Both the position numbers and the translations under genes were made by a program. A model generated the notes under the pieces. It made no database searches. It saw only the letters and a program-made list of their open reading frames with translations, and was not told the DNA's origin. From an uncultured Burkholderiales bacterium (lineage in GTDB: Bacteria > Pseudomonadota > Gammaproteobacteria > Burkholderiales > Burkholderiaceae_C), in NCBI GenBank assembly GCA_945952065.1, contig CAMFGY010000040.1:1-35458 (forward strand): a stretch of DNA of 35,458 bases, in the 5' to 3' direction. Shown piece after piece: positions 51 to 5,878 of the stretch; the stretch's first letter is position 1; each line of letters starts with the position of its first letter.

Positions 51-86
51 CAGGTCTTCAGATTTAAGGCCTGCCCCTCCAGCCCC
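51..86. repeat. Short repeat shared with 3341-3375
   Basis: The stretch reads CTTCAG, R, TTTAAGGCCTG, then CCCTC and AGCC. It matches 3341-3375 apart from a few substitutions. Both copies follow the 3' end of a minus-strand cassette gene (stop at 124 here, stop at 3398 there). The GGGTCAGGCCTT style resembles palindromic elements tied to REP-associated tyrosine transposases, but that is from memory and not proven here. It may instead be part of the cassette tails. Confidence 0.5.
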
Positions 87-123: not shown

Positions 124-504
124 TCACGAATGGTGGAGAAGCGAGCCGAGCCCGTAGCCTACTGTTGGCGTTGCGTAGATGGCAAACCAAGTAGCTGCAG
201 CCGATGGCTCGAAGTTCTGGCTGCGCAGATGAGCAGCCGCCAGAACAAGCAGGTTGGCTGAAGCGCCGAGAAAAAGACCAACTGTTTCCGGAGAAGCCGC
301 GAACTGGGAAAACTCTACAGCGCCAAGACAGACGAGCCACCAAACTGGGGTGGCGAGAACTGCCAGAAGGACGCGCCTTTGAATTGGCTCCTTTGGGGAG
401 AAGAACAACAGCAAAGGTGAGAAGAAGATGGCGGCGGCCACGTGAGCGAACGGAGCTAGCAAGCCGTAGCCCGCCATGACGCCTGCGATCTCCTTTGCTG
501 ACAT
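124..504 (-). CDS. Small integral membrane protein, cassette-borne
   Basis: This encodes 126 residues with about four hydrophobic segments (roughly residues 8-35, 43-65, 73-93 and 103-122), so it is predicted to be an inner-membrane protein. I do not recognise a family. The ATG at 504 lies only 8 bases after an attC-like core (GTTAGGC on the minus strand, 512-518), as is usual for integron cassettes. No ribosome site precedes that ATG. A second in-frame ATG at 477 has AAGGAG 12 bases upstream and could be the true start, giving 117 residues. The base composition is lower in GC than the chromosomal genes to the right. Existence as a gene is likely; function is unknown. Confidence 0.65.
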   Translation of the reverse strand: MSAKEIAGVMAGYGLLAPFAHVAAAIFFSPLLLFFSPKEPIQRRVLLAVLATPVWWLVCLGAVEFSQFAASPETVGLFLGASANLLVLAAAHLRSQNFEPSAAATWFAIYATPTVGYGLGSLLHHS

Positions 505-511
505 TCAAGAG

Positions 512-815
512 GCCTAACGAAGCTGTCCAATAACCCCAAATCCACAAGCACCCTCACCCCGCGCAGCGCGTGTCCGTTGGTGAACGTGAATGTCTGGGTT
601 CATTGGTGCCTGGGTTTGAATCTGCGCGTCGCGGTTCTCTTTAGCGCTGTCCTGGCGATTGTGCCGCTTATTGGCCGCGTTACTGGCCTCTCATTGGCCC
701 GAGCCCCGCATTCGAGAGCTTCTCGATGTTGTGCACCCTGCAAAACAGGCGCCACTGCGTCCGCACCTTGGCTGGCCCGCGAGAGTTCAGTCGGCTCAGG
801 CGTTTGTTGTGCCGA
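512..815 (-). repeat. Composite repeat copy A: IS tail plus attC-like core
   Basis: This 304-bp segment is strongly similar to 2926-3275 and 3881-4232. Read on the minus strand, each copy runs from the end of an IS1182-like transposase, through about 165 noncoding bases, to the tip GACAGCTTCGTTAGGY. The tip fits the integron core GTTRRRY. The next cassette gene begins 7 to 14 bases later in all three places. Copy A is the shortest: similarity stops near 815. The sequence beyond the core is unrelated between copies, as expected for a cassette boundary. Confidence 0.75.
680..815 (-). pseudogene. IS1182-like transposase C-terminal remnant (copy A)
   Basis: The minus-strand reading contains RHNKRLSRLNSRG and then WRLFCRVHNIEKLSNAG, ending GPMRGQ and a TAA stop. 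The pattern RHNK.L.R...RG..KV..QW.LFC.VHNIEKL is typical of the C-terminus of IS1182-family DDE transposases. The last 45 or so residues are present. The catalytic domain and N-terminus are missing, and the reading upstream of the RHNK motif is unrelated sequence. It cannot be functional. Confidence 0.7.
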
Positions 816-887
816 GCGAATGGAGCCCTGTTCATCGGCTCACCATCCCTCAACACATTCAACTCAGCCTTGTTGCAAAGGCGATTG

Positions 888-950
888 ACTCAACGGGAAG
901 TCCTACTAAAAAGGGGTAAGGCGTCACGGTGCTTGCAGGCGGAGTTGAGC
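888..950 (-). other. Weak attC candidate at the end of a cassette gene
   Basis: On the minus strand GCTCAAC (950-944) fits RYYYAAC and GTTGAGT (894-888) fits GTTRRRY. The two heptamers complement each other at 6 of 7 positions, and the distance (63 bp) suits an attC. The stop codon of the cassette gene (924) falls inside, which is tolerated in known cassettes. Against it, I found no good inner stem. If real, it makes repeat copy A (512-887) a separate cassette made mostly of transposase tail. Confidence 0.3.
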
Positions 951-1319
951 GACGGGCCGCTGATTGGCAAGAAAGCCCTTCATGCTTCGGACGTACTCGT
1001 CTTTTGACTTTGGAAACGCACTGAGTACCACTGGCTTACCATTCGCAAGTCGAAGCCCGTTTGCGGCCACAAAGCCGAAAACGCTAGCGACAACTTCAGG
1101 GTTTGTTGCCGAGTACAGGTTCAATTCAACTGTACGTCCATCTCGTCGGTATATCGGCGCAACCTGATTACAACTCGCAAAATCCTGGCAATGCCCTGCT
1201 TGAATGAGATGCTTGTCTAGTTCGGCTGAGAGTCGATTTCCCTCGTCAGAGAAACCAGACCCAGCATGACCAGTCGCAGCGACTATTAATAGACTAACGA
1301 GTAACAGGACTTTGATCAT
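924..1319 (-). CDS. Exported protein of unknown function, cassette-borne
   Basis: This encodes 131 residues. It starts with a clear signal peptide (hydrophobic residues 3-16 and a likely cut after TGHA or nearby), so the product is predicted to be periplasmic or secreted. The mature part has two cysteines close together (HCQDFASC) that could form a disulfide. I do not recognise a family. The ATG lies 42 bases after the core of the attC at 1361-1417, with no obvious ribosome site. The gene sits in the same orientation as the other five cassettes. Confidence 0.65.
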   Translation of the reverse strand: MIKVLLLVSLLIVAATGHAGSGFSDEGNRLSAELDKHLIQAGHCQDFASCNQVAPIYRRDGRTVELNLYSATNPEVVASVFGFVAANGLRLANGKPVVLSAFPKSKDEYVRSMKGFLANQRPVAQLRLQAP

Positions 1320-1360
1320 TGTCGGAGCGGGCGCCGAGGCACGCTAGTTGATGTTGAAAC

Positions 1361-1417
1361 GCATAACGTGAAAGTGAGCGGACGCCGAAGGCAGTCCGCT
1401 CGAATGACAAGTTAAAC
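1361..1417 (-). other. attC recombination site
   Basis: Read on the minus strand, the site opens with GTTTAAC (1417-1411, fits RYYYAAC) and closes with GTTATGC (1367-1361, one base off GTTRRRY). Between them GAGCGGAC (1376-1383) and GTCCGCTC (1394-1401) pair perfectly, and the stem continues inward with GCC/GGC around a GAA loop with one extra base. Length (57 bp), end boxes and imperfect stem match integron attC sites. It belongs to the LprI-like cassette (1425-1853). Confidence 0.85.
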
Positions 1418-1424
1418 ATCGGTT

Positions 1425-1853
1425 TCATCTTATTGAGGCTGCAATGGCTTGAACCTCAGAAACTCGACGATCGTTAAGCTCGATTCTGCACAAAAGCCTT
1501 CTATCGTTTGCGCCGTTACCTCCGGCGGCAAGCGTCGCCTGGAATTCACACTGCGCTGCCCGCGAACGAAGAAACTCTGCATGCGCCCGCTTTTGCGCGG
1601 CAAGGGCTGCTCGTTTGTAGTCTTCATCCTCGCCCCAGGCGCCGATCACCTGCCGCAGAACGCGCTCGGCCTCTTCGAGCCGCGCATCAGACTGGGTCGC
1701 TCGGGCAATTAGGCAACTGCGCGCGCTGGCGTGGCCAAGCTGACCTAGGCAAATCGCCTCAGCTTGAGCGCTACGTTGAGCTACCGCCAACGTCGGCAAT
1801 AACAAAGCAGATGCGATAAATGCGTTACGCAAGCCGGAGATGATCAAGGTCAA
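1425..1853 (-). CDS. LprI-like exported protein, cassette-borne
   Basis: This encodes up to 142 residues. After a signal peptide (about residues 8-25, ending LAVAQ) the protein has four cysteines spaced as in the LprI N-terminal (DUF1311) family: a first pair in the region CLGQ to SCLI, then AQCEFQATLAAGG and a late C before R. The same family includes proteins reported to inhibit lysozyme; that role is inference here. The start is uncertain. The frame opens with TTG at 1853 directly after the attC core, with another TTG at 1847 and no clear ribosome site. Stop is TGA, 8 bases before the attC. Confidence 0.65.
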   Translation of the reverse strand: MTLIISGLRNAFIASALLLPTLAVAQRSAQAEAICLGQLGHASARSCLIARATQSDARLEEAERVLRQVIGAWGEDEDYKRAALAAQKRAHAEFLRSRAAQCEFQATLAAGGNGANDRRLLCRIELNDRRVSEVQAIAASIR

Positions 1854-1854
1854 T

Positions 1855-1898
1855 GTTCAGCGGGCCGCGAAGCCGGCCACTGCAGCAAAGGGTTGAAT
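1855..1898 (-). other. attC recombination site, short, with altered core
   Basis: On the minus strand the site runs from ATTCAAC (1898-1892, fits RYYYAAC) to GCTGAAC (1861-1855). The second box has C where GTTRRRY demands T. Between them GGCCG and CGGCC pair around a 6-base loop. At 44 bp it is shorter than most attC sites. It follows the stop of the exported-protein gene (1915) and directly precedes the LprI-like gene, which is the expected place. Confidence 0.65.
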
Positions 1899-1914
1899 CG
1901 CAGCGCACTTGACA

Positions 1915-2313
1915 TTAGTCCCCCGAGACAAAGTAGACCAACTTCCATGAGCCGTCGACTTGCTCAAAGCCTGCACGATAAGCCAAGCCGGCAGTGGCTG
2001 GACATTGGAGAACACCCCGTTTGATCCAGCCACATTTGGCTCGGGTCACTTTGGCCAAGGCCGTCAAGTATTTGGGTTCCTTCTTCCATTCGGCAACAGC
2101 TTGCTCTCTGTCTGCATCGCCCCCAAAGCTCCAAGTGAACTTTGTGCTCATGCTCGCACGCAGCGTGGTGTAGTCGCTGTGCGCCGCTGCCGAATGAACC
2201 CTCGAAACGGCGGTAAGCAATTCGACTGGAATCGTGTCACTGGCCGATGCTGAAGAGACAAAGCCTACAAGAGCAGTGAAGGCGAATCGAGTCAACGTCG
2301 GCACGACCGGCAT
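1915..2313 (-). CDS. Exported protein of unknown function, cassette-borne
   Basis: This encodes 132 residues with a signal peptide (hydrophobic residues about 8-22, likely cut near SASA). The mature domain of about 105 residues contains FTWSFGGD and a late RAGF, W and YFVSGD end, plus two cysteines. It may adopt an NTF2-like fold, but I cannot name a family with confidence. GCAGGAG directly touches the ATG at 2313, which is too close. An in-frame GTG at 2304 lies 9 bases after that motif and is the better start by spacing. The gene lies between two attC sites. Confidence 0.65.
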   Translation of the reverse strand: MPVVPTLTRFAFTALVGFVSSASASDTIPVELLTAVSRVHSAAAHSDYTTLRASMSTKFTWSFGGDADREQAVAEWKKEPKYLTALAKVTRAKCGWIKRGVLQCPATAGLAYRAGFEQVDGSWKLVYFVSGD

Positions 2314-2321
2314 CTCCTGCG

Positions 2322-2378
2322 GTTCAGCGATTGCGTTCAGCCGCGCCGTTAGGCGGCGGCTGGACCTGCGGGTTAGGC
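2322..2378 (-). other. attC recombination site with altered core
   Basis: Read on the minus strand, GCCTAAC (2378-2372) fits RYYYAAC exactly and the far box is GCTGAAC (2328-2322), one base off GTTRRRY. Inside, CAGCCGC and GCGGCTG pair around a loop that itself contains a second CCTAAC. Length 57 bp. The site begins 7 bases after the stop of the HEPN-motif gene, the usual position for the attC of that cassette. Confidence 0.8.
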
Positions 2379-2385
2379 CCTCGGA

Positions 2386-2919
2386 TCATACTTCCGCCAA
2401 TACCTCGACCTTCAACTGGTTCAGTTGGTCGATCAATTTCATGAACATCGCTGACGTAACGACAAGCCGCCCAGGTGCAAGCTGCCATGCTAGATGTCGG
2501 ACCTTCGTGTGCTCGTCTGTAATGATGGACTGACCATGAACGACGCAGTTTCTTACGAGACGTAAGTCTCCGAGCAGATCACAACGAACACTATTTTTCT
2601 TCCTACCGAGAGCCTTGGCGAAATTCGGTCGATAGTACTCGTCCCACTCGGAATAGATGACCACAAGGAGAGATTTGGCAAGCGCATCGGTGAAGGCGCC
2701 GTCTTGCCTCAGCGCCCGCAACAGATCGTCACTTTGCAGGGATGCCGTGGCGGGAAAAAGTGTGGGGTCCTTCTCGCTGAAGAACATCCGCGTTCCCGGC
2801 GGAACATTCGCAAACCGCGCATTCGACATAGCCAATCCCTCTGTCGCCAGGGAGAAGCAAACATAGTGCATTTGGCATGCCGCCTGGAACTGCGCGAGGA
2901 TGGGGTGGCCTTGCGACAT
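2386..2919 (-). CDS. HEPN-motif protein, cassette-borne
   Basis: This encodes 177 residues and is predicted to be cytoplasmic, without signal or membrane segments. Near the C-terminus, RNCVVH (R123 to H128) fits the R-x4-6-H signature of HEPN domains, many of which are RNases in toxin-antitoxin or phage-defence systems. It is preceded by helical sequence SLLVVIYSEWDEYYRP, a setting common in HEPN proteins. The nuclease role is inference. The open frame runs 14 codons further upstream through the attC core into the repeat, but the ATG at 2919 is the first start inside the cassette (7 bases after the core) and is chosen. No antitoxin partner lies beside it. Confidence 0.65.
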   Translation of the reverse strand: MSQGHPILAQFQAACQMHYVCFSLATEGLAMSNARFANVPPGTRMFFSEKDPTLFPATASLQSDDLLRALRQDGAFTDALAKSLLVVIYSEWDEYYRPNFAKALGRKKNSVRCDLLGDLRLVRNCVVHGQSIITDEHTKVRHLAWQLAPGRLVVTSAMFMKLIDQLNQLKVEVLAEV

Positions 2920-2925
2920 TTGTTG

Positions 2926-3275
2926 GCCTAACGAAGCTGTCCAATGACCCCAAATCCGCAAGCACCCTCTCCCCGCGCAGCGCGTGTCAGTTGGTGAGCG
3001 TGAATGTATGGACTCATCGGTGCGTGGATTTGAATCTTTGCGTCGCGGTTCTCATTGGCGCCGCCTGAGTGATTGTGCCGCTTATTGGCCGCGTTACTGG
3101 CCCCTCGTTGGCCCGAGCCCCGCATTCGAGAGCTTCTCGATGTTGTGCACCATGCAAAAAAGGCTCCACTGCGTCCTGACGTTCGCTTGCCCGCGATGGT
3201 TCAGGCGGCTCAGGCGTTTGTTGTGCCGCAGGTTTGCAAACACCGGCTCCACGGTGCCGATGCGTTGGCTTTGGA
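2926..3275 (-). repeat. Composite repeat copy B: IS tail plus attC-like core
   Basis: This is the second copy of the repeat described at 512-815, with the same order: transposase tail, about 160 noncoding bases, then GACAGCTTCGTTAGGC. The core is at 2926-2932 and the next gene starts 7 bases later. Similarity to copy C continues to about 3275. I looked for a partner RYYYAAC box inside the repeat that would complete an attC with this core and found none that pairs well. Confidence 0.75.
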
Positions 3276-3306
3276 GCACGGGGCAGGCTTTGAGTTTCAA
3301 GTCCTA
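3094..3306 (-). pseudogene. IS1182-like transposase C-terminal remnant (copy B)
   Basis: This is the best preserved of three remnants, about 70 residues. The minus strand reads SQRIGTVEPVFANLRHNK, then WSLFCMVHNIEKLSNAG and a stop at 3094. The order TVEPVFANLRHNK, RG, QW, VHNIEKL matches the end of IS1182-family transposases. A TAG interrupts the frame just upstream at about 3307, and the catalytic domain is absent. It is a dead fragment, and terminal inverted repeats were not found. Confidence 0.75.
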
Positions 3307-3340
3307 GAGATCTTGGTCAATTGCTTTGTGGCCCATTGAG

Positions 3341-3408
3341 GACTTCAGGTTTAAGGCCTGACCCTCTAGCCGTGACCCTCTAGCCGGGTCTGACCCTCTA
3401 GCCGGGTG
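3341..3408. repeat. Repeat motif followed by three tandem units
   Basis: The first part (3341-3375) matches 51-86. It runs into three head-to-tail units starting TGACCCTCTAGCCG at 3359, 3373 and 3391; the last two are 18 bases long and differ only in the final base. The TAG stop of the DUF3592 cassette gene (3398) lies inside the last unit, so the end of that protein was made by this repeat. Confidence 0.7.
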
Positions 3409-3871
3409 CATTCTTCTCATTCTTTCGTACGGCCCAACCGAACCAACCAAGAGCCACTGGAATTGCAAGTTGTACGACAAGGTCACTCCAACCTGTACGA
3501 CTTGATCGTGATTGCGGCGTTGAAACAATTGCTGATTTTGGGGAGCTTGGCAAGTAGCGCACATCGATTGCACGCCCAACCGGCATTTGATCTTGACTCG
3601 TATCACACACCATTGAAGTCATCTGGTAATTCTGCCCTGCGACCTCGTACGAAACTGTAACCCTAGACGGGCATGTACCTCTTCCGCTACCAGAAGCTCT
3701 CGAGTGCGCGACGACGATTCCAGTTGCGAAGGCGCCGTACTGATCTATGGCACGCTCAACGAGAAGTCGCTCATAGGTTCTTGGAACGCTGTAGACCAAT
3801 GGAATGATCGAGATCGGGATGAAAGCCCAAAACACCCACGGGTTGATCCGCAACTTAGTTTCAATGGCCAC
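3398..3871 (-). CDS. DUF3592 membrane protein, cassette-borne
   Basis: This encodes 157 residues from a GTG at 3871, 9 bases after the core at 3881-3887. It has a membrane segment near the N-terminus (about residues 11-30, WVFWAFIPISIIPLVY) and another near the C-terminus (about 127-146, LVVQLAIPVALGWFGWAV), with a soluble domain between. That domain shows the DUF3592 pattern: ATGIVV, CPSRVTVSYEVAGQ and IDVRYLPSSPKSAIV, with two cysteines. Function of the family is unknown to me. The frame is open upstream through the core, so a start inside the repeat (TTG at 3916) is possible but less likely. The last codons fall in tandem repeat sequence. Confidence 0.65.
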   Translation of the reverse strand: MAIETKLRINPWVFWAFIPISIIPLVYSVPRTYERLLVERAIDQYGAFATGIVVAHSRASGSGRGTCPSRVTVSYEVAGQNYQMTSMVCDTSQDQMPVGRAIDVRYLPSSPKSAIVSTPQSRSSRTGWSDLVVQLAIPVALGWFGWAVRKNEKNAPG

Positions 3872-3880
3872 TTTGCTGCA

Positions 3881-4232
3881 ACCTAACGAAGCTGTCCAAC
3901 AACCCCAAATCCGCAAGCACCCTCACCCCGCGCAGCGAGTGTCAGTTGGTGAGCGTCAATGTCTGGGTTCATCGGTGCGTGGGTTTGAATATTTGCGCCG
4001 CAGCTTTCTTTGCCGGTGCCTGCGCGATTGTGCCGCTGATTGGGCGCGATGCTGGCCCCTCATTGGCCCGAGCCCCGCATTCGAGAGCTTCTCGATGTTG
4101 TGCACCCTGCAAAACAGGCGCCACTGCGTCCGCACCTTCGCTTGCCCGCGATGGCTCAGGCGGTACAGGCGTTTGTTTTTGTGCCGCAGGTTGGCAAGCA
4201 CCGGCTCCTCGGTGCCGATGCCTTGCCTGTAC
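3881..4232 (-). repeat. Composite repeat copy C: IS tail plus attC-like core
   Basis: This is the third copy of the repeat at 512-815 and 2926-3275. Its core is GTTAGGT (3887-3881, minus), differing from the other two only in the last base, which in cassettes is donated by the next cassette. The copy breaks off near 4232, 17 bases from the stop of the lipoprotein gene, so this is the right-hand boundary of the island. Confidence 0.75.
4052..4232 (-). pseudogene. IS1182-like transposase C-terminal remnant (copy C)
   Basis: The minus strand reads GIGTEEPVLANLRHKNKRL, then WRLFCRVHNIEKLSNAG and GPMRGQ. One extra codon splits the RHNK motif (RHKNKR) compared with copy B, and the stop found in copies A and B is replaced by CAT, so the frame runs on into noncoding repeat. 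About 60 residues of the C-terminus remain. Not functional. Confidence 0.7.
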
Positions 4233-4249
4233 AGCTCGCGGCCCCGCGC

Positions 4250-4606
4250 TCAGCTGCAGCTGGGCACCTCGGGTTTGCCGCTGGACTTCATGCACTGCTT
4301 GTAGCCGGACGGCAAGTGGTTGAGCTGTTTGGACTGGCCCACGCTGAGCTTGAATTGCTCGAACACCTGATGCGTGCAGGTGGTGGTGGAGGTGTTGCCT
4401 TCGCCGCCCACCGACTCACAGCGGCTGGTGAAGAGCGCGTAATTGCATTCGCCACTGGGGCTGGCTACGCATTCAAATTGGGTCGAGCCCGGGGTTTTGA
4501 CCGAGGCGCTGTCGCCGTCCTTGCTGCTGGTGATGTGGATGGCGCAGCCACTGAGGGCGGCGGCCAATGCGAACGCGGCCACGGCGCAGAGGCGGGTCTT
4601 GATCAT
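4250..4606 (-). CDS. Small lipoprotein
   Basis: This encodes 118 residues. A signal peptide with lipobox LSGC (lipidated cysteine at residue 21) predicts an anchored lipoprotein. Six further cysteines in the mature part suggest disulfides. The protein is not assigned to a family. The ATG at 4606 is preceded by CAGGAG at 8 bases, which decides the start over the longer open frame. The gene sits between the cassette island and the AraC gene, in the same direction as both. Its base composition fits the chromosome, so it is probably the first host gene beside the island. Confidence 0.75.
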   Translation of the reverse strand: MIKTRLCAVAAFALAAALSGCAIHITSSKDGDSASVKTPGSTQFECVASPSGECNYALFTSRCESVGGEGNTSTTTCTHQVFEQFKLSVGQSKQLNHLPSGYKQCMKSSGKPEVPSCS

Positions 4607-4682
4607 GAAACAAACTCCTGAGGATGAGGAAGGCAGATGCCCGCATCCTAGGCAAGCCCGCAAGACCTGACCCTGCGCTTGC

Positions 4683-4717: not shown

Positions 4718-5878
4718 TCAGCCCGCTGCGCGTGCGCGCCAAGCTGCCGGTGTGCAGCCAAACCAGCCTCGAAACGCGTGGTTGAAATTGCTTTGCTCGT
4801 TGTAGCCCAGCAAAAACGCGATCTCGGTGAGCGAGAGCTGCGGGTCGCGCAGCAAGGCCTGCACCTGTTCACGGCGCACCGCTTCCACCAGGGCGGTGAA
4901 GCTGGCCTGGGCCTCGGCCAAGCGGCGCTGCAAGGTGCGCACGCTGAGGCCCAAGGTGCAGGCCACCGCGGGCAGTTGGGCGCGGTCATGCCGCAGCTGG
5001 GTGCGAATGCACGCGCGTACCGCTTGCACAATGGCCGCTTCGGGGGGCGCGCTGCTCTGCGCCTCGGCCAGACCCGCTTCGCGCAGGCGCTGCGCCAGGC
5101 GTTCCTCCGCCGCGCGCAGCAGCGGCGGGAACATGCCCACATCGGCATTGGGCAGCGGCAGGTCCAGCACCTGGGCCGGGAAGCTGGCCTCGGTGACCGC
5201 AGCGCCAAAGCGCACCGGCGCGCCAAACACCCACTGATACTCGGCCAGATCGGCGCCCGCCGGCGCCGCGTGCACAAAGGCCAGGGCATAGGCCGGCACG
5301 CTGGCGCCCCCGGCCAGCCAGCTGACAAAAGTGTGGATGCCGGCCATCACGCTCTCGCTCAGATGACGGGCGCCGGGCTGGTCCAGCCAGGGCGAATGCC
5401 AGCGGTAATGCGCCAGCGGCGGCAAGCCTGCTTCGCGCCCCGACGCGCCCTTCTCCTCCTCCAACACAATTTCAGAACGCCCCAGGTCATGGGCCAGGCC
5501 CTCAAAGCGGCGCGTCTGCTCGGCAGCGGCGCGGAAGTTGGCGCAGGTGCACAGCACCAAGCCATAGCTGGCAAAGGTGGACAAGCCCATGCGCTGGCCC
5601 ACATGCAGGCCAAAGAACACATCGTCCAGCTGCAGCGCGGCGGCGTTCAGCAAAGCGATATAGCGCGGCACCGGTATCACCTCGGGCAAGGCGGCACCGG
5701 CCTGGGCGATCTCCGGCAGGCCGCAGGCCTCGGCCAATCGCACCATATCCGCGCCCAACTCGCGGGCGGTGTCCACCGCCGTTTTCGCATACGCGCCCAC
5801 CACCCGGGCCTGGGCCGGCGGCGGCAGGCTGCTCAAGGGCTCAGGCGAGATCTGCGTATCAGGAGAAGCAAGGGGCAT
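4718..5878 (-). CDS. AraC-family transcriptional regulator
   Basis: This encodes 386 residues. The N-terminal 240 or so match the arabinose-binding-like domain of OruR-type AraC regulators (HVGQRMGLSTFASYGLVL is typical). The C-terminal hundred residues form two helix-turn-helix units: LGLSVRTLQRRLAEAQASF and then LSLTEIAFLLGYNEQSNFNHAF, with the conserved F..AFR.WFG.TP end. The gene follows the FGGY kinase by 53 bases on the same strand, so it is probably the last gene of the operon and its regulator (inference). No strong ribosome site precedes the ATG. Confidence 0.9.
   Translation of the reverse strand: MPLASPDTQISPEPLSSLPPPAQARVVGAYAKTAVDTARELGADMVRLAEACGLPEIAQAGAALPEVIPVPRYIALLNAAALQLDDVFFGLHVGQRMGLSTFASYGLVLCTCANFRAAAEQTRRFEGLAHDLGRSEIVLEEEKGASGREAGLPPLAHYRWHSPWLDQPGARHLSESVMAGIHTFVSWLAGGASVPAYALAFVHAAPAGADLAEYQWVFGAPVRFGAAVTEASFPAQVLDLPLPNADVGMFPPLLRAAEERLAQRLREAGLAEAQSSAPPEAAIVQAVRACIRTQLRHDRAQLPAVACTLGLSVRTLQRRLAEAQASFTALVEAVRREQVQALLRDPQLSLTEIAFLLGYNEQSNFNHAFRGWFGCTPAAWRARAAG

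What the first reader, a model, noticed from the sequence alone, without database searches (positions are those of the whole stretch)
512..4232. Three copies of an IS1182 tail fused to an attC-like tip
Repeats at 512-815, 2926-3275 and 3881-4232 all end at the same GACAGCTTCGTTAGGY tip, and cassette genes begin 7 to 14 bases later. All three keep only the transposase C-terminus but break off at different upstream points. Either an IS tail was captured as part of a large recombination site and spread with the cassettes, or an IS1182-like element targets or carries an attC core. Neither is something I know to be described for this IS family. I could not find a partner box that folds into a full attC.
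Basis: partly seen in the sequence, partly recalled or inferred. Interest (0 to 1): 0.8.

Follow-up and report, generated by a model that had tools for sequence, protein, structure and literature searches.

The report
Jumping gene that targets integron sites
The three repeats are broken right-hand ends of a jumping gene (an IS1182-family insertion sequence) that inserts at the exact spot where integrons swap gene cassettes, a habit that I could find described only for other kinds of mobile element.

Summary
The repeats are 5'-truncated right ends of an 1824-bp IS1182-family element, intact twice elsewhere in the genome (99.0% identical). Its right end GGACAGCTTC abuts the attC R' core GTTRRRY; its left end GAAGCTGT follows an attC complete up to ...CAAACGTT. 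The 'tip' is IS right end plus attC core; GTT stands on both sides. Of nine related attCs fetched from other genomes, seven run on uninterrupted with no IS. Among 79 loci found by transposase similarity plus the two own copies, all 81 have GTT (48) or AAC (33) at a mapped end; 63 of 66 with both ends mapped have identical 3-bp flanks. An attC model places a hit at the insertion in 34 of 69 testable cases (45 at E<=1; about 0.1 expected by hand); about eight insertions do not look like attC. Orientation classes sort into clades. The window tips give no attC hit. attC-targeting by IS1111 elements is known; my searches showed no report for IS1182. Transposition and IntI activity were not tested.

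The parts
512..518 (-). attC R' core GTTAGGC next to remnant 1 (downstream half of an IS-split attC)
519..814 (-). IS remnant 1, IS positions 1529-1824 (end of transposase gene, 3' non-coding part, right terminal repeat)
2926..2932 (-). attC R' core GTTAGGC next to remnant 2
2933..3270 (-). IS remnant 2, IS positions 1487-1824
3881..3887 (-). attC R' core GTTAGGT next to remnant 3
3888..4248 (-). IS remnant 3, IS positions 1467-1824; begins one base after the stop codon of the ORF 4250-4663
124..504 (-). cassette ORF (126 aa, no Pfam match) following remnant 1
924..1319 (-). cassette ORF (131 aa, no Pfam match)
1361..1417 (-). uninterrupted attC (GTTTAAC ... GTTATGC); also one of the 18 training rows of the attC model
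   Evidence: E 6.8e-8
1425..1853 (-). cassette ORF (142 aa, LprI family, PF07007)
1915..2313 (-). cassette ORF (132 aa, no Pfam match)
2322..2378 (-). possible weak attC between cassette ORFs
   Evidence: E 0.41, not significant
2386..2919 (-). cassette ORF (177 aa) following remnant 2; Pfam hits below cut-off only
3398..3871 (-). cassette ORF (157 aa, DUF3592) following remnant 3

Best explanation
The three repeats are decayed right ends of a site-specific insertion sequence of the IS1182 family (1824 bp, one 523-aa DDE transposase, imperfect terminal repeats GAAGCTGT..AA.AA.CC). It inserts into attC recombination sites of integron gene cassettes at the R' core, the triplet in which IntI cuts (G^TTRRRY; cut position recalled), leaving GTT on both sides and fixing its orientation relative to the cassettes. 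Shown by sequence: IS ends, GTT on both sides, uninterrupted attC in other genomes, recurrence in 81 elements, orientation clades. Inferred: the transposase recognises attC (as a folded hairpin or as base-of-stem sequence); the GTT repeat is a 3-bp target duplication; the upstream attC, which keeps R'', L'', L' and GTT with GARG in place of RRRY, may still recombine; the tails then lost their 5' parts by ordinary deletion, insertion and homologous recombination.
For: Intact copies C70 and C32, 1824 bp each, 99.0% identical...CAGCTCAAACGTT|GAAGCTGTAAAAAAACC...GGTTATTGGACAGCTTC|GTTAGAC and GTTAGGC. Transposase above the NCBIfam IS1182 cut-off (284.7 vs 270) with DDE Pfam domains. IntI over cut-off in the same genome (C5, 485 bits) and a 45-residue IntI-like piece, below cut-off, beside the C32 array. 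The attC split in C32 has relatives (76-92% identical) in other genomes; 7 of the 9 fetched continue into the R' box without IS. 79 loci chosen by transposase similarity only plus 2 own: 48 GTT class, 33 AAC class; 63 of 66 with both ends mapped have identical 3-bp flanks. attC model R1: 34 of 69 testable insertions have a hit (E<=0.01) ending within 8 nt of the insertion, 45 of 69 at E<=1. Base profile of 68 insertion sites resembles that of 60 untouched attCs. attC-side flank has the lower fold z-score in 51 of 62 loci (mononucleotide shuffles). The labels F, R and outgroup need 3 changes on the tree (least possible 2) against 21.5 in shuffles.
Against: 24 of 69 testable insertions have no model hit at the insertion. 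By eye some of these are attC-like, but about 8 (L030, L033, L040, L050, L053, L088, L092, L093) do not look like attC, so specificity is not absolute. The downstream boxes fit GTTRRRY strictly in only 36 of 76, against 26 of 42 untouched attCs outside the training set. At the 24 sites without a model hit (23 testable), hairpin evidence is weak and mixed: 9 of 23 against 70 of 396 control GTT sites at score 7, 3 of 23 against 23 of 396 at score 8, medians equal, so recognition of structure alone is not shown. A loose motif-plus-arm test passed 41 of 62 insertions but also 108 of 485 chromosomal GTT sites, so it carries little weight. The three window copies have lost their left ends, so their own GTT repeat cannot be seen.
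Confidence: 0.94

Rival explanations
1. An IS tail became part of an oversized attC, and IntI spread the cassettes with the tail as their recombination site.
For: All nine copies end at the recombination core and are followed by nine different downstream sequences; C32b and C5 share 810 nt ending at the tip but have different downstream cassettes. A motif-and-fold search lists a possible attC-like stretch at window 857-950, 43 nt upstream of remnant 1; the attC model does not report it.
Against: Two copies are intact transposable elements. No attC model hit at any of the three window tips up to E=10; window 512-911 folds with z 0.11. Of the 25 differences between C32b and C5 over 810 nt, none lie from -547 to -115 and 15 lie in the last 114 nt before the tip, which fits homologous recombination inside the tail, not exchange at the tip.
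Confidence: 0.04
2. The IS landed once beside an attC by chance and copies arose by duplication or homologous recombination of the array.
For: Tails are mosaic, and some share upstream DNA.
Against: Intact C70 and C32 copies sit in different attCs with different neighbours; GTT/AAC-flanked elements 41-90% identical recur in loci of Pseudomonadota, Gemmatimonadota, Verrucomicrobiota and Thermodesulfobacteriota, and model-supported attC insertions are frequent among them.
Confidence: 0.01
3. The transposase recognises only a short double-stranded motif around (A)ACGTTA, and attC is hit because it contains it, not because it is attC.
For: GTT/AAC at nearly every mapped flank; insertions outside recognisable attC exist at GTT.
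Against: The insertion-site profile resembles attC well beyond the core, including the L' box positions -13 to -8 (the untouched set was required to have GTT in place). Inference: a 5-7 bp motif would be hit mostly outside cassette arrays.
Confidence: 0.25

Closest known systems
IS1111-attC group (IS110/IS1111 family; ISKpn4, ISPst6)
   Different: Those use a DEDD transposase (start of the abstract of PMC11187229) and a seekRNA from a non-coding region (passages). The element here has an IS1182-type DDE transposase, terminal repeats at the very ends and a 3-bp flanking repeat.
IS1272 and the IS1182 family
   Same: Same transposase family (NF033551); IS1272 targets inverted repeats, and some IS1182 members are said to target palindromes (passages of PMC5678879).
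   Different: IS1272 replaces the stem-loop, without target duplication and without a common target sequence (passages). Here attC is kept, GTT is repeated and the site is fixed. Transposase identity to IS1272 is about 23%.
ISPmo1 (IS1182 family)
   Same: IS1182 family; in one plasmid it lies near an attC.
   Different: About 26% identical. In NZ_CP046903.1 that attC is uninterrupted (L135:1280-1337, E 3e-12), and the stretch shared with other ISPmo1 copies begins some 55 nt further on, not at the core.
Group IIC-attC introns
   Same: Another mobile element that uses attC as target (recalled, not from a call).
   Different: Retrotransposed intron, not a DNA transposon (recalled).

Membership tests
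IS1182 family | Transposase over the curated IS1182 model cut-off | tested here: met
   NF033551 284.7 bits, cut-off 270
IS1182 family | DDE transposase domains | tested here: met
   PF13751, PF01609, PF05598 above gathering scores
IS1182 family | Terminal inverted repeats | tested here: met
   GAAGCTGTAAAAAAACC / GAAGCTGTCCAATAACCCC, imperfect
IS1111-attC group | Inserts at attC | tested here: met
IS1111-attC group | IS110/IS1111 DEDD transposase | tested here: not met
   Transposase is IS1182-type; no IS110 model among its matches; not a member
IS1111-attC group | RNA-guided target choice (seekRNA) | not tested
   No analysis of a non-coding RNA of this IS was done
attC site (insertion target) | R'' RYYYAAC and R' GTTRRRY boxes | tested here: met
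   Both own insertions: R'' GCCTAAC, R' GTTAGAC and GTTAGGC
attC site (insertion target) | Imperfect hairpin of the bottom strand | tested here: met
   C32 target: -31.2 kcal/mol, z -4.12; model hits 4.8e-9 (C70) and 6.7e-9 (C32)
attC site (window tail tips) | Full attC at the tip of the window repeats | tested here: not met
   No R1 hit at 512, 2926 or 3881 up to E=10; copy 1 fold z 0.11
Integron | IntI gene with cassettes in opposite direction | tested here: met
   In the genome, not on the window contig: C5:199718-200662 +, 485 bits, with attC hits on the minus strand of L016

The most novel reading that the evidence does not exclude
A large clade of IS1182-family elements has evolved to read attC itself, probably its folded form, and to insert at the base IntI cuts in a way that leaves the upstream attC recombinogenic (GTT + GARG instead of GTTRRRY). 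The IS then becomes the leader of the downstream cassette, and IntI can move it as cargo: a transposon that parasitises a recombination system and hitchhikes on it. The side of attC that the transposase faces flipped at least once in the clade.
Probability: 0.35. Interest if true: 0.78.

Novelty: new variant of a known kind. Interest (0 to 1): 0.62.

Why it matters
attC-specific insertion is known for IS1111 elements and, from recall, group IIC introns. A DDE transposase family that reaches the same site, at a fixed base and in a fixed orientation, would be convergent evolution on a folded DNA target. It gives integron biologists a second class of array parasites: it interrupts attC, lengthens cassettes, supplies repeated sequence for homologous recombination between arrays (C32 and C5), and can mislead cassette and attC annotation. 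The orientation switch between clades makes the question of what the transposase reads directly testable.

Tried and rejected
Rfam gave no match at gathering scores in L014, L016 and the window, so I built an attC model from 18 attCs not touching an insertion. They were picked from the same loci by box motifs and fold, and their strand was judged by eye, partly with the element's class known. Of the 68 against 3 orientation count, 15 and 1 are training rows (hand count), leaving 53 against 2. The hit table typed into one search left out four own-genome rows (L013 43-120, L013 3060-3117, L014 5929-5996, L014 4379-4475; all on the predicted strand), the L015, L016 and window rows, and hits with E above 0.75.

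End mapping: up to 4 mismatches were accepted at left ends and 5 at right ends; two 5-mismatch left-end calls (L074, L080) were set aside by hand. Class F or R was assigned from the flanks themselves. In the profile, 67 untouched-attC rows were typed; 7 without GTT in the expected place were dropped. Two of these 7 (L073 1802-1869, L077 1415-1487) are in fact insertion sites that I had listed by mistake.

A loose motif-plus-arm attC test was dropped as evidence (41 of 62 insertions, but 108 of 485 chromosomal GTT sites). An earlier arm-energy test (49 of 67 against 204 of 1549 at -18) has a control that contains real attCs. A hairpin test at insertions without a model hit gave a weak, mixed result.

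I considered that IntI made the 5' breakpoints: no attC model hit lies at any of the seven breakpoints, though a motif-and-fold candidate lies at window 857-950, 43 nt from that of remnant 1. I considered that right ends are kept selectively: the own genome has 7 C-terminal and 0 N-terminal pieces, but the relatives have roughly 11 C-terminal (2 at contig ends) and 8 N-terminal pieces by protein match (counted by eye; one of the 8, L107, keeps both DNA ends), so no general bias is claimed. The tip pattern GGACAGCYTCGTTRRRY matched 20 places in 10 of 299 family genomes, 7 of them in the own genome, against 6 for the reversed control; outside the own genome the pattern alone is weak. The tree used 56 of 81 elements: 24 loci with stops, frameshifts or short matches were left out, and C32 was represented by C70. 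In a third plasmid relative (L136) no element end was located.
Full report
1. What is there. The window is a whole contig (C40) of a 5.27-Mb genome in 74 contigs. Its first 4.2 kb, read on the minus strand, is a cassette array: six short ORFs, one clear attC at 1361-1417 (E 6.8e-8, though also a training row of the model), one doubtful attC at 2322-2378 (E 0.41), and the three repeats of the finding. Further on lies an AraC-type regulator (4718-5878) and what looks like ordinary chromosome. None of the IntI-model matches in the genome lies on this contig.

2. The repeats are IS right ends. Searching the genome with repeat 2 gave nine strong copies and three weak ones. All nine end at the same base. 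What follows is GTTAGGC, GTTAGGT, GTTAGAC or GTTGGGC, which fit GTTRRRY, or in one copy GTTCGGC, which does not. Two are intact: 1824 bp each, 99.0% identical, with a 523-aa transposase that passes the IS1182 family cut-off and has DDE transposase domains. The element begins GAAGCTGTAAAAAAACC and ends GGTTATTGGACAGCTTC, an imperfect terminal inverted repeat. The window copies correspond to IS positions 1529-1824, 1487-1824 and 1467-1824.

3. The insertion site is the attC core. Left of the intact copies is an attC complete up to GTT (R'' GCCTAAC ... CAGCTCAAACGTT), right of them GTTAGAC or GTTAGGC. The attC model scores these split sites at 4.8e-9 and 6.7e-9. The bottom strand of the C32 attC folds at -31.2 kcal/mol, z -4.12, with 0 of 200 shuffles as good. 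Related attCs occur in other genomes: 39 of 299 family genomes, the own one included, matched some part of the 399-base query. Of the nine loci fetched from other genomes and compared (76-92% identical), seven run on into GTTAGNC (L159, L160, L161, L162, L165, L166) or CTTAGGC (L163) with no IS, and two (L158, L164) have diverged ends. These seven are the empty sites. The same search for the C70 attC did not complete. The extra GTT in the occupied site is either a 3-bp target duplication or a triplet carried by the IS; the data do not separate the two.

4. It is a family habit. One scan of 84,980 species genomes with the transposase returned 203 relatives; the best 80 gave 79 loci, 41-90% identical, chosen without regard to integrons. 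With the two own copies there are 81 elements. Terminal repeats were located by a fuzzy search that did not use the flanks (two poor left-end calls set aside by hand). Each of the 81 has at least one mapped end next to GTT (48, class F, transposase in cassette direction) or AAC (33, class R, opposite direction). Of 66 with both ends mapped, 63 have identical 3-bp flanks; the three exceptions (L064, L070, L090) differ by one base. The downstream boxes fit GTTRRRY strictly in 36 of 76, against 26 of 42 untouched, non-training attCs. A 72-position attC model from 18 attCs away from insertions was run over 84 sources, 512,878 bases. Of 69 insertions whose attC side is mapped, 34 have a hit with E<=0.01 on the predicted strand ending within 8 nt of the insertion, and 45 at E<=1. 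By hand: 105 hits at E<=0.01 counted, 17 positions each, over 1.03 Mb of strands, gives about 0.12 expected of 69. Other attCs in these loci lie on the predicted strand in 68 of 71 cases (53 of 55 without training rows, hand count). The base profile at 68 insertions follows that of 60 untouched attCs, at the core (where GTT was required of the untouched set) and also at the L' box. The attC-side flank has a lower fold z-score than the other flank in 51 of 62 loci (medians -1.88 and -0.22, mononucleotide shuffles).

5. What does not fit. 24 of 69 have no model hit at the insertion. Several of these read as attC by eye or by arm energy (for example L044, L049, L051, L057, L083); about eight do not. 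Hairpin evidence at those sites is weak and mixed: 9 of 23 against 70 of 396 control sites at score 7, 3 of 23 against 23 of 396 at score 8, equal medians. So the preference is strong but not absolute, and what is read, folded hairpin or base-of-stem sequence, remains open.

6. Orientation and history. In a tree of 56 unbroken transposases with four IS1182 outgroup proteins, the GTT/AAC-flanked elements are parted from the outgroup by a branch of 100/100 support, and the labels F, R and outgroup need 3 changes (least possible 2) against 21.5 in shuffles. Relatives of about 42-44% identity in Pseudoalteromonas and Catenovulum plasmids show GTT or AAC at the ends located, though the model found no attC there. 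ISPmo1, a distant IS1182 element, lies some 55 nt past an uninterrupted attC in one plasmid; the other three outgroup loci have no attC hit at E<=1.

7. How the window state arose. Insertion splits attC after GTT and, in class F, puts the IS between attC and the next cassette gene, in cassette direction. The upstream attC keeps all but RRRY, which the IS end replaces by GARG. The model hits end 5 nt past GTT in 32 of 45 cases, one more than in an intact box, which suggests that GTTGARGC is read as an R' box with one extra base; I did not view those alignments. Whether such a site still recombines is inference. The tails then lost their 5' parts. Copies C32b and C5 share 810 nt that include an IS110-type remnant (weak NCBIfam hit, 18.2 bits, below cut-off; tblastn to annotated IS110 transposases). 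They differ at 25 places, of which none lie between -547 and -115 and 15 lie in the last 114 nt before the right end, so they were most likely exchanged by homologous recombination in the tail. The window tips carry no attC model hit, and the tail of copy 1 folds like shuffled sequence.

8. Literature. attC-targeting IS1111 elements (Tetu and Holmes 2008; Post and Hall 2009) are known to me from recall and from passages and reference lists in PMC11187229, PMC11089894 and PMC12444791; the 2008 paper itself is not held. PMC11089894 reports transposases in cassette arrays assigned mostly to IS5, IS3 and IS110 (passages). IS1272, an IS1182-family member, replaces stem-loops (passages of PMC5678879). 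Searches with IS1182 and attC+integron (2 papers), gene cassette (26, 20 listed), integron integrase (8), palindrom (50, 20 listed), IS1182 family+target (66, 20 listed), and for attC with insertion sequences or IS1111 (14; 22 with 20 listed; 7; 3) showed no title or start of abstract that describes attC-targeting by IS1182 elements (listings only, apart from the passages named here and those of PMC8868234 and PMC4438569). Most subscription papers and ISfinder are outside this library. At least 6073 proteins match at E<=1e-60 (8000 candidates scored); among the best 120 the names given are generic (transposase, DDE transposase, IS1182 family transposase).

9. Verdict. It is a new variant of a known kind: attC-specific insertion, by a different transposase family.

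Noticed in passing
window 52-84 and 3339-3405 (minus strand); also upstream of the C32a tail in L014: A short repeated sequence (AGGGTCAGGCCTTAAACCTGAAGTCC) with CTAGAGGGTCAG-like units just upstream of IS remnant 2; a similar stretch precedes the C32a tail. Possibly another small mobile element.
   Followed up: no
L014:7012-7421 and L016:7725-8134: IS110-type transposase remnant on the opposite strand abutting the IS1182 tail in two arrays (C32b, C5); perhaps a former IS1111-attC element in the same array.
   Followed up: partly
L082 (1343 bp), L094 (1169 bp); G023:C2 and G011:C21 by protein match: Elements that seem to keep both ends around a shortened or internally deleted transposase gene, i.e. 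shortened derivatives of this IS.
   Followed up: no
L041 after the transposase; L089 right flank: A second right end of the same IS soon after the first, as if elements inserted repeatedly at one site (L041 contains an N).
   Followed up: no
L037:4800-4858: An attC model hit whose last bases read TTGAGGC, like the left end of this IS after GTT: perhaps a second insertion in the same array.
   Followed up: no
G000:C32:52758-52892: A 45-residue match to the C-terminal end of the IntI model (56.2 bits, below cut-off) next to the C32 array: perhaps a second integron that has lost its integrase, beside the intact one on C5.
   Followed up: partly
Gemmatimonadota loci L070, L075, L081, L087 and L057, and the nearby L049: Class R elements whose targets may be attC of another style; five of the six were testable and none has a model hit at the insertion.
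   Followed up: no
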